A DNA stretch of 64,000 nucleotides from NCBI RefSeq assembly GCF_027923555.1, contig NZ_AP025523.1:2050484-2114483 (forward strand). The letters run 5' to 3'. This DNA comes from Vulcanimicrobium alpinum. GTDB taxonomy: Bacteria > Vulcanimicrobiota > Vulcanimicrobiia > Vulcanimicrobiales > Vulcanimicrobiaceae. Below are positions 10,021 through 59,100 of this stretch, in pieces; within the stretch, counting starts at the first letter, position 1; the number at the start of each line of letters is the position of its first letter. A program made the translations under genes and the position numbers. The notes beneath the pieces were generated by a model. That model did no database searches, was not told the origin of the DNA, and worked only from the letters and a program-made list of their open reading frames with translations.

Positions 10021-13818
<3,798 letters not shown>

Positions 13819-13907: not shown

Positions 13908-13930
13908 GTCACGCTGAGCCTGTCGAAGCG
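13908..13930 (+). repeat. Dispersed intergenic repeat, copy in rpoC leader
   Basis: Core CTGAGCCTGTCGAAG, flanked by GTCACG. Related copies lie at 46846-46868 (rpoB leader), 59078-59100 and, as a half copy, 31575-31591. All are intergenic. This copy lies inside the predicted rpoC 5' untranslated region, about 90 bases before the start codon. Confidence 0.75.
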
Positions 13931-14003
13931 CCGCCGGCGCCGTGACATCTCAGGAAAAGCAAGACGGCCCCAGGGGACGCCCGGTGCGACGTTCCTTGGG
14001 TCC

Positions 14004-14061
14004 GCGTTATCGGCCGAAGGGCATAGGGACGTAGAATAGCACATCCGCGCCAGAATGTCCA
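14004..14061 (-). promoter_or_regulatory. rpoC promoter and conserved transcript start
   Basis: On the minus strand there is a -35 box TGGACA (14061-14056), exactly 17 bases of spacer, and a -10 box TATTCT (14038-14033). Six bases later comes CTATGCCCTTCGGCCGATA, almost identical to the sequence at the same distance from the rpoB -10 box. The motif could form a small hairpin, GCC-CTTC-GGC. The predicted leader is about 200 bases. The call rests on consensus match and on the parallel with rpoB. Confidence 0.7.
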
Positions 14062-31574: not shown

Positions 31575-31591
31575 CGCTTCGACAAGCTCAG
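31575..31591 (-). repeat. Half copy of the dispersed repeat at the IS110 left end
   Basis: CGCTTCGACAAGCTCAG matches the inverse of the repeat at 13908, 46846 and 59078, then similarity stops where IS110 sequence begins. A matching continuation, CGTGACG, is found at about 42766, on the far side of the element. The repeat therefore looks like the IS110 target. Confidence 0.65.
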
Positions 31592-41391: not shown

Positions 41392-41826
41392 TCAGTCGTC
41401 CAGGTCGTCGAACTCGGGGCTCTTGTACTCGATGTTCAAGAGCCCCGCTGCTTTTTTTCGGATGTCTTCGAGAAGCTCCAAGCGCGCGATCTTGCGTTGC
41501 AACCTGCGTATCTCAATGTCTTGCTCGTGGTTCGTTTTCTTGAGCGATTCGGCTTCCTTACGATCGAGAGCTCGGGCCTTAATTTCCTTTGGATCGTAAT
41601 CGCCGCGATCGCGCTCCTTGCGCCATGCGTACAGCTGCGAAGAGTAGATGCCTTCGCGGCGCAAGAACGCACCGACCGTACCCGACTCGCAGGCATCAGC
41701 ATCGTTCACAATACGCGCCTTTTCGGCGACCGAGAAGCGACGTCGCGTCGGCCGCTGAACCGGCGTCTCGACAATCGAGAGCCGACGCTCAATCGACGGC
41801 GGCGAACCGTTTGAGGGTGGGTTCAT
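41392..41826 (-). CDS. IS3-beta OrfA
   Basis: 144 residues, same translation as the other two copies. The A7 run and GGGGCTCTTG/CAAGAGCCCC stem are preserved near 41416-41458. The gene is intact, but its OrfB is cut just downstream by IS3-gamma. Confidence 0.92.
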   Translation of the reverse strand: MNPPSNGSPPSIERRLSIVETPVQRPTRRRFSVAEKARIVNDADACESGTVGAFLRREGIYSSQLYAWRKERDRGDYDPKEIKARALDRKEAESLKKTNHEQDIEIRRLQRKIARLELLEDIRKKAAGLLNIEYKSPEFDDLDD

Positions 41827-41904
41827 GGTATGCTCCTGACAGCCCCAGCTTAACAGAACTTTTCCGAGGGAGCTGGTACCACATCATCCTGACACATGGG
41901 GTCC

Positions 41905-42616
41905 CGGACTGCCGCTCTGCCGGCGTAAGGCCGGCATACGCCGCTGCGGCTTTGGCACTATGGAGCCGATGCACCGGCAACTCCGCAAGCACGTTTGCCG
42001 CTGTCAAGGACGCGACGCCTGGTATGGTCTGAAGAAGCTGCGCGTTCCGGCTTAGCGTGACATCCGAGCAAAGAACACCTTGGATCTGCGACTCGATCTG
42101 CTTGACCATCTCCGCGATACCGACCAGATGCGTTTCGTTCATTTTGAGCAGCGTTGCTCCGACGGCGACGGATTGCACGATCTGCGTAAGGGCAATACGC
42201 TGCGCGATGAGCTGGTCGCGATACGCCAGCAAACCGCGCAGGGACAGGATTTCGTCGCTATCAGGCTCCCAGAGCGCGGGGCGCTCGGAGGCGCAGAATT
42301 GGGCCAGCATTCGAGCGTCGACCGCATCGGTCTTGGTCCGCAGCAAACGGCTCTTCGCAAAATATGCCGTACGCGTCGGGTTCACCACGCTCACCCGGAT
42401 TTTCGCTTTGTGCAAGTTCGCCGCTAAGTGGCGCCAATACGGCCCGGTTGACTCCATGCACACATGAACCTCGTGGGCGCGATGCGTGCGCAACCAACTG
42501 CGAAGCTTTCTGAAGCCGGTTCGCGTGTTCTCAAAACTCGCCTCACTGCGCTTCTCGCCGCGTTGCAAGCAGCAGTGGAACGTGTCCTTAGAGATATCGA
42601 CGCCCAACATGCTCAT
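41905..42616 (-). pseudogene. IS110 transposase, N-terminal fragment
   Basis: It begins MSMLGVDISKDTFHCCLQRG, the DEDD (RuvC-like) domain of IS110 transposases: first Asp in GVDISK, Glu in VHVCMESTGPYW, then KTDAVDARMLAQF. It continues into the transposase-20 domain (QTIPGVASLTAANVLAEL, AAAYAGLTPAERQSG) where IS3-beta cuts it. The remainder is at 31607-31848. Joined, the protein is about 318 residues. Confidence 0.92.
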
Positions 42617-42859: not shown

Positions 42860-46768
<3,909 letters not shown>

Positions 46769-46845
46769 TCTGTCTCTGGGGTTCTTCCTGCGTAGCTCAC
46801 GCGCGGTCGGGGCCGATCAACGCGAAAAGGCAAGGACCGCCTCCC

Positions 46846-46868
46846 GTCACCCTGAGCTTGTCGAAGGG
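46846..46868 (+). repeat. Dispersed intergenic repeat, copy in rpoB leader
   Basis: Core CTGAGCTTGTCGAAG with GTCACC before and GG after. It lies inside the predicted rpoB 5' untranslated region, about 80 bases before the start codon, the same placement as the copy in the rpoC leader (13908-13930). Confidence 0.75.
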
Positions 46869-46900
46869 TGGAGTGAGGGGTCCTCGCTCGTTCGATATGC

Positions 46901-46958
46901 CGCTATCCGCCGAGGGGCATAGGGCGGTATCGTACTACGCCACGTCCACTCAGGTCAA
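46901..46958 (-). promoter_or_regulatory. rpoB promoter and conserved transcript start
   Basis: On the minus strand a -35 box TTGACC (46958-46953), 18 bases of spacer and a -10 box TACGAT (46934-46929). Six bases later comes CTATGCCCCTCGGCGGATA, matching the rpoC leader motif with a few differences that keep the potential GCC/GGC stem. The predicted leader is about 155 bases. A divergent gene (47028) starts on the other side. Confidence 0.7.
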
Positions 46959-59077: not shown

Positions 59078-59100
59078 GTCACCCTGAGCTCGTCGAAGGG
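59078..59100 (+). repeat. Dispersed intergenic repeat, copy before kdp
   Basis: Core CTGAGCTCGTCGAAG with GTCACC before and GG after, in the gap between the CheR-like gene and the kdp operon. Same family as 13908, 46846 and the half copy at 31575. Confidence 0.75.

What the first reader, a model, noticed from the sequence alone, without database searches (positions are those of the whole stretch)
46846..46958. Dispersed repeat placed inside the rpoB 5' leader
A copy of the CTGAGCTTGTCGAAG repeat lies between the rpoB transcript start and start codon, matching its placement in the rpoC leader. Such repeats usually sit between genes; two of the three full copies in this window are in RNA polymerase leaders. 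They might act in RNA folding, as a protein-binding site or just be tolerated there. It also offers an alternative explanation for leader similarity: a larger mobile intergenic repeat that includes both motifs.
Basis: partly seen in the sequence, partly recalled or inferred. Interest (0 to 1): 0.6.

Follow-up and report, generated by a model that had tools for sequence, protein, structure and literature searches.

The report
Repeat inside rpoB mini-ORF leader
The repeat is an ordinary scattered palindrome that landed in the loop of a hairpin ahead of an RNA-polymerase gene, but checking it showed that the messages for both large RNA-polymerase subunits in this bacterial family begin with a conserved five-codon mini-gene, usually followed by a terminator-like hairpin, which looks like an undescribed control switch for making RNA polymerase.

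Summary
The window is from Vulcanimicrobium alpinum WC8-2 (Eremiobacterota/Vulcanimicrobiota; genome length matches exactly). The repeat is real at 46852-46866. It is one of about 139 copies of a REP-like palindrome, mostly between genes and often in inverted pairs. No Y1 (RAYT-type) transposase gene was found. CCCTATGCCC occurs only three times genome-wide, so it is not part of the repeat, and the 'larger mobile repeat' idea is rejected. In rpoB the repeat is unique to this species among ten genus members and sits in the loop of a leader hairpin. In rpoC it lies after the hairpin and is shared by five of nine. The repeat is best read as tolerated. The leader is the interesting part. CTATGCCC is the start of a near-leaderless five-codon ORF (rpoB MPLGG*, rpoC MPFGR*), 8 nt after the -10 box. 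Across the family, 23 of 28 genera with a full rpoB leader have a stop at exactly codon 6, using all three stop codons. It is usually followed by a co-evolving hairpin plus U-run. The promoter-plus-motif is essentially specific to rpoB and rpoC. I propose a mini-ORF-controlled transcription attenuator; the anatomy is well supported, the mechanism inferred. No Rfam match or earlier description found.

The parts
42860..46768 (-). rpoB, RNA polymerase beta subunit, 1302 aa
   Evidence: ORF; Pfam RNA_pol_Rpb2 domains 1-7
46929..46958 (-). rpoB promoter: -35 TTGACC, 18 nt spacer, -10 TACGAT
   Evidence: consensus scan, 1 found against 0.1 in shuffles; same -35/-10 arrangement and 8-nt distance to RTG in nearly all family members
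46903..46920 (-). rpoB mini-ORF ATG CCC CTC GGC GGA TAG (MPLGG*), with 8 nt between the -10 and the ATG
   Evidence: sequence; conserved start and stop across the family
46830..46887 (-). rpoB leader hairpin, outer arms GCGAGGACC / GGTCCTTGC
   Evidence: folds at about -33 kcal/mol; 64-nt fold z -2.5; arms co-evolve across genera
46825..46828 (-). U-run (UUUU) directly after the hairpin: attenuator-like
   Evidence: sequence; hairpin plus U-run found in most genera with a mini-ORF
46846..46870 (+). REP-like repeat (core 46852-46866) inserted in the apical part of the rpoB leader hairpin
   Evidence: absent from 9 other genus members' rpoB leaders
10021..13818 (-). rpoC, RNA polymerase beta' subunit, 1265 aa; start codons of rpoB and rpoC about 33 kb apart
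   Evidence: ORF; Pfam RNA_pol_Rpb1 domains
14007..14024 (-). rpoC mini-ORF ATG CCC TTC GGC CGA TAA (MPFGR*)
   Evidence: sequence; relatives MPFGR/MPLGR/MPHGR/MPRGK/MPRGQ
13955..14003 (-). rpoC leader hairpin (approx. 13966-14003) followed by U-run 13955-13958
   Evidence: sequence; hairpin plus U-run in most ATG-type rpoC leaders
13908..13931 (+). REP-like repeat (1 mismatch, core 13914-13928) between the rpoC U-run and the rpoC start
   Evidence: a repeat in the rpoC leader of 5 of 9 genus members
31577..31591 (-). repeat copy cut by an IS110-family element end (junction CGGCGGACACGGAAT|CTGAGC...)
   Evidence: IS110 domains in the element at sibling junctions
59084..59098 (+). further repeat copy, 1 mismatch, intergenic

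Best explanation
Two independent things overlap here. (1) The repeat is one copy of a REP-like palindrome present in about 139 copies. It inserted recently, and probably neutrally, into the loop of a hairpin in the rpoB 5' leader, extending the stem without touching the outer arms or the U-run. (2) The leader is a conserved, lineage-specific regulatory leader of the RNA polymerase genes. An extended -10 promoter starts the RNA at or within a few bases of an ATG; that ATG opens a five-codon ORF (consensus M-P-x-G-x-stop), followed by a terminator-like hairpin and U-run ahead of rpoB, and in many lineages ahead of rpoC too. Most likely mechanism: transcription attenuation of RNA polymerase synthesis governed by a ribosome on the near-leaderless mini-ORF. 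Shown by comparison: promoter, start, stop, hairpin, specificity for rpoB/rpoC, co-occurrence of mini-ORF and hairpin. Inferred: that the ORF is translated, that the hairpin terminates transcription, and that a ribosome on the mini-ORF changes the outcome (for example by blocking pairing of the mini-ORF RNA with the hairpin's 3' arm).
For: Repeat: 139 copies, control 0; 28 of 30 close neighbours are +- inverted pairs; of 47 sampled copies 22 convergent, 13 tandem, 5 divergent, 5 inside predicted genes; in the rpoB leader of 1 of 10 genus members. Leader: TGNTANNNTNNNNNYCTRTGCC has 103 listed matches in 99 family genomes; 97 lie directly upstream of rpoB or rpoC, and about 9 reversed-control matches set the chance level (two of the 97, in G081 and G116, assigned by hand from coordinates). 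Stop triplets at nt 16-18: 23 of 28 genera with a full rpoB leader, at most 4 of 28 at any other offset from 7 to 40. Frame 0 stops at codon 6 in about two thirds of genera, other frames scattered. TAA, TAG and TGA all used and exchanged within genera g9 and g18; silent changes such as CCC>CCT, CAG>CAA, GCA>GCT, and G120 against G000 CTC>CTG, GGC>GGT, TAG>TAA. Arm-arm co-evolution z -5.3, 0 of 5000 shuffles, one row per genus. Mini-ORF and hairpin+U-run co-occur, pooled Fisher p about 1e-7, not corrected for phylogeny. Mini-ORF against the 3' arm z about -3, suggestive only.
Against: No RNA or ribosome data: start site, translation and termination are all inferred. Many rpoC leaders of other genera keep YCTGTGCCC with GTG and no conserved short ORF, so RTGCC must have a further role or be tolerated without the ORF. 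Six genera (short rpoB leaders g4, g8, g14, g45, g51, and g21) lack both mini-ORF and hairpin. The codons show no run of one amino acid as in trp-type leader peptides. The alignment-based tests failed: RNAalifold found only 3 trivial pairs and a fixed-column pair count did no better than shuffles. In V. alpinum the U-run is only four U, and the consensus terminator scan does not report it.
Confidence: 0.6

Rival explanations
1. The conserved YCTRTGCC is a promoter or initially transcribed DNA/RNA signal (start-site choice, promoter escape, initiating-nucleotide sensing) and the short ORF is incidental.
For: GTG-type rpoC leaders keep YCTGTGCCC at the same 8-nt distance without a conserved stop; the motif is specific to rpoB and rpoC promoters.
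Against: It does not explain a stop triplet at exactly codon 6 in 23 of 28 genera, exchange among TAA, TAG and TGA, or silent changes in the ORF. The two may coexist.
Confidence: 0.25
2. The mini-ORF and hairpin form an mRNA-protection or processing device (5'-end shielding by a ribosome, RNase site), not a transcription attenuator.
For: The hairpin often pairs on through the U-run in single-sequence folds, unusual for a plain terminator; ribosomes at a 5' end can protect mRNA (general knowledge).
Against: The U-run directly after the hairpin is kept in most genera.
Confidence: 0.2
3. The repeat is a functional, selected part of the polymerase leaders (protein-binding site or RNA switch).
For: Present in both leaders of this genome; the rpoB copy has the longest arm pairing among 51 copies examined; a repeat recurs in the rpoC leader of 5 of 9 genus members.
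Against: Absent from the rpoB leader of the other 9 genus members; in different positions relative to the hairpin; in opposite orientation in one relative's rpoC leader; about 137 other copies elsewhere.
Confidence: 0.07
4. A larger mobile intergenic repeat carries both the repeat and CTATGCCC and explains the leader similarity.
For: Both motifs are near each other in the two leaders.
Against: CCCTATGCCC only 3 times genome-wide against >=136 repeats; relatives carry the leader motif without the repeat.
Confidence: 0.01

Closest known systems
REP / REPIN elements, including the GTAG and CGTC superfamilies (PMC3733652, PMC3116915)
   Same: High copy number, short imperfect palindrome, mostly between convergent or tandem genes, inverted pairs; like CGTC elements, no dedicated transposase gene known
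   Different: Foot is GTCAC, not GTAG; preceded by C (CGTC) in only 25 of 46 copies not cut by an IS (counted); short outer stem and an 11-nt core rather than an 8-9 bp stem opening with A-T pairs
IS110-family elements that target REP sequences (IS621 type; PMC11208160, PMC1525189)
   Same: IS110-type element joined exactly to the repeat at 5 places
   Different: Only the junctions were examined; bridge RNA not looked for
Leaderless short-ORF attenuators of mycobacteria (Canestrari 2020, as cited in PMC13236596)
   Same: A short ORF at the 5' end of the mRNA ahead of the regulated gene
   Different: There poly-cysteine codons and cysteine-responsive operons; here M-P-x-G-x-stop without repeated codons, and RNA polymerase genes
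Classical leader-peptide transcription attenuators (trp, ilvB1, whiB7 type)
   Same: Short ORF, then terminator-like hairpin with U-run, then gene
   Different: ORF of only five codons at or near the 5' end, no regulatory codon run; an antiterminator is only weakly indicated

Membership tests
REP (repetitive extragenic palindrome) | Short palindromic repeat in high copy number | tested here: met
   139 copies at <=1 mismatch, reversed control 0; 43 of 51 copies pair at least 1, mostly 2, flanking bases beyond the CT/AG ends
REP (repetitive extragenic palindrome) | Mostly outside genes, often in inverted pairs | tested here: met
   5 of 47 sampled copies inside predicted genes; 28 of 30 close neighbours inverted, 33-77 bp apart
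GTAG REP mobilised by a RAYT | GTAG foot and a Y1 transposase gene in the genome | tested here: not met
   Foot is GTCAC; no PF01797 match in this genome, one in 11 genus genomes, control genomes positive
CGTC REP superfamily | CGTC tag, 8-9 bp stem opening with A-T pairs, 4-5 nt loop, CCA tail | tested here: not met
   CGTC in 25 of 46 uncut copies; stem opens with S-C-T, not A-T (family definition PMC3733652)
Leader-peptide transcription attenuator | Short translated leader ORF | tested here: inconclusive
   Conserved start and stop and silent changes; translation itself not testable here
Leader-peptide transcription attenuator | Terminator-like hairpin plus U-run between ORF and gene | tested here: met
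   24 of 34 rpoB genera by a fixed rule; arms co-evolve
Leader-peptide transcription attenuator | Mutually exclusive antiterminator | tested here: inconclusive
   Mini-ORF with 3' arm z -2.1 to -3.5 in several windows, many tests
Leader-peptide transcription attenuator | Run of regulatory codons for one amino acid | tested here: not met
   Codons 3 and 5 vary freely among genera
Any Rfam family | Match to a covariance model | tested here: not met
   No match at gathering score in the window or 15 leader loci; only insignificant matches at E up to 5

The most novel reading that the evidence does not exclude
In Vulcanimicrobiota the two large RNA polymerase subunits are each controlled by a transcription attenuator whose sensor is the ribosome itself: a near-leaderless five-codon ORF at the very 5' end of the mRNA. 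The element was copied to rpoC when rpoC separated from rpoB, so the two genes stay co-regulated and polymerase level is tied to translation capacity.
Probability: 0.3. Interest if true: 0.82.

Novelty: new variant of a known kind. Interest (0 to 1): 0.6.

Why it matters
How bacteria set RNA polymerase amounts is understood mainly from E. coli, where rpoBC lies behind ribosomal protein genes (general knowledge). A dedicated mini-ORF leader on rpoB and rpoC would be a direct link from ribosomes to polymerase synthesis, in a phylum with a cultured member in which it can be tested. It also shows two subunit genes of one complex keeping a shared leader after separating. The repeat itself matters little, except as a natural perturbation: a stem inserted in the hairpin loop.

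Tried and rejected
RNAalifold on the MAFFT leader alignment gave 3 trivial pairs, and pair counts on fixed columns equalled shuffles, probably because the arms drift by 1-2 columns; replaced by a segment permutation test that needs no base-level alignment. (pattern with mismatches, own genome) did not list the two exact window copies that one search finds, so its list was not used; one search replaced it. A Y1/RAYT transposase as the repeat's mobiliser: none in this genome. The larger mobile repeat: rejected. Gene calls there come from a simple codon-usage script, not a standard gene finder. No covariance model was built. Text searches for the repeat sequence and for rpoB leader ORFs found nothing relevant.

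Full report
WHAT THE WINDOW IS. The window is bases 2050484-2114483 of a single 3,508,363-base contig. That length is identical to the published chromosome of Vulcanimicrobium alpinum WC8-2, the first cultured member of Eremiobacterota (PMC9758169). rpoB lies at 42860-46768 and rpoC at 10021-13818, both on the minus strand, identified by Pfam domains.

THE REPEAT. CTGAGCTTGTCGAAG is at 46852-46866. Genome-wide there are 139 copies at up to one mismatch and none of the reversed control; CTGAGCNNGTCGAAG has 136. Close neighbours are nearly always inverted pairs 33-77 bp apart (28 of 30). Of 47 sampled copies, 22 lie between convergent genes, 13 between tandem genes, 5 between divergent genes and 5 inside predicted genes. 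The usual form is GTCAC-S-CTGAGCNNGTCGAAG-S, with flanking bases that often pair. Copy number differs widely inside the genus, from 1 to 202. This is a REP-like family. It is not a RAYT-type GTAG REP: the foot is GTCAC and no Y1 transposase is found in this genome. It resembles the CGTC superfamily in lacking a transposase, but not in its stem (PMC3733652). At five places, one of them window 31577, an IS110-family element joins the repeat precisely, as known for IS110 elements that target REPs (PMC11208160, PMC1525189).

IS THE REPEAT PART OF THE LEADER? No. CCCTATGCCC occurs three times in the genome: the rpoB leader, the rpoC leader, and one place about 21 kb from the nearest listed repeat. 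In the rpoB leader the repeat is found in this species only, out of ten genus members. The nine others have GCGAGGACCCCTCACTCC-GGTGGG..GGTCSTTGCCTTTT or a close variant; here about 28 bases with the repeat replace the loop. The hairpin keeps its outer arms and U-run and becomes longer (about -33 against -17 kcal/mol in a relative). In rpoC a repeat occurs in 5 of 9 genus members, after the U-run, once in the opposite orientation.

WHAT THE SHARED LEADER MOTIF IS. Comparing leaders from 99 family genomes shows a constant layout: TTGAC, about 17 nt, TGnTAnnnT, 8 nt, then RTGCC. In V. alpinum the ATG opens ATG CCC CTC GGC GGA TAG before rpoB and ATG CCC TTC GGC CGA TAA before rpoC. Sixty-four genomes in 23 genera have a stop at exactly codon 6 in the rpoB leader. 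Among 28 genera with a full-length leader, a stop triplet stands at nt 16-18 in 23, and at no other offset from 7 to 40 in more than 4. All three stop codons are used, with exchanges inside genera g9 and g18, and several changes are silent. The consensus peptide is M-P-x-G-x. In rpoC, leaders beginning ATG have the same kind of ORF (MPFGR, MPLGR, MPHGR, MPRGK, MPRGQ), whereas many other genera have YCTGTGCCC with no conserved stop. The strict promoter-plus-motif pattern has 103 listed matches in the family, of which 97 are rpoB or rpoC leaders; the reversed control gives about 9. In the related order-level group (f2) the peptide is MPPG, and in the class-level group (f3) two genera share a 20-codon ORF, M-P/S-x-W-D-D-C-A...G-S-P, with silent differences.

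THE HAIRPIN. Most full-length leaders fold a hairpin that ends at a U-run. A permutation test that pairs the 5' segment of one genus with the 3' segment of another shows that true partners pair better: arms z -5.3 (0 of 5000), inner part z -2.4 (50 of 5000), one row per genus. The mini-ORF has no comparable partner; a weaker signal links it to the 3' arm (z about -3), which would fit an antiterminator but rests on several tests of related sequences. Mini-ORF and hairpin+U-run occur together: rpoB 24 genera with both, 6 with neither, 4 with the ORF only; pooled with rpoC, Fisher p about 1e-7, without correction for shared descent.

HOW IT MOST LIKELY WORKS. The RNA begins at or just before the ATG; a ribosome starts there, reads five codons and stops; the hairpin and U-run beyond form a conditional terminator in front of the polymerase gene. 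Ribosome presence on the first 18-30 nt probably changes whether the terminator forms. The layout is shown by comparison; translation, termination and the link between them are inferred.

RELATION TO WHAT IS KNOWN. Leader-peptide attenuators and leaderless short-ORF attenuators are known kinds. I found none on rpoB or rpoC in the open-access papers searched, and no Rfam family matches. Subscription papers were mostly not searchable, so 'undescribed' is provisional.

Noticed in passing
family-wide; window 10021-13818 and 42860-46768: rpoB and rpoC lie apart throughout the family members checked (about 33 kb between their starts here, a few to about 23 kb in relatives with both on one contig) but are adjacent in the sister order and class members.
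   Followed up: partly
rpoC leaders of 17 genera, e.g. L134 and L126: Most GTG-type rpoC leaders carry a strongly conserved motif GCAACGGTGGG..CTTACGTGACNACGTGAG..CCCTGCGTAAGC with a predicted consensus structure (RNAalifold -11.4 kcal/mol) and no Rfam match: a second, different candidate RNA element.
   Followed up: partly
window 31577-31591 and L002, L010, L012, L014: An IS110-family element is joined exactly to the repeat at five places, as for REP-targeting IS110 elements.
   Followed up: partly
window 41789-42616: IS110-family transposase ORF directly downstream of rpoB.
   Followed up: no
G013 contig C32:19246-20669: A second copy of an rpoC promoter and leader, identical in the compared stretch to that of G001 (another genus), plus a 24-codon rpoC start fragment, stands about 1 kb before the genome's own rpoC; transfer or a chimeric assembly.
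   Followed up: no
rpoB leaders of class-level relatives G047, G048, G053 (L233, L232, L234): A 20-codon ORF starting at the same place (M-P/S-x-W-D-D-C-A...G-S-P) is shared by two genera with silent differences.
   Followed up: partly
genus-wide (genomes G000-G010): Repeat copy number ranges from 1 to 202 among species of one genus without a matching Y1 transposase.
   Followed up: no
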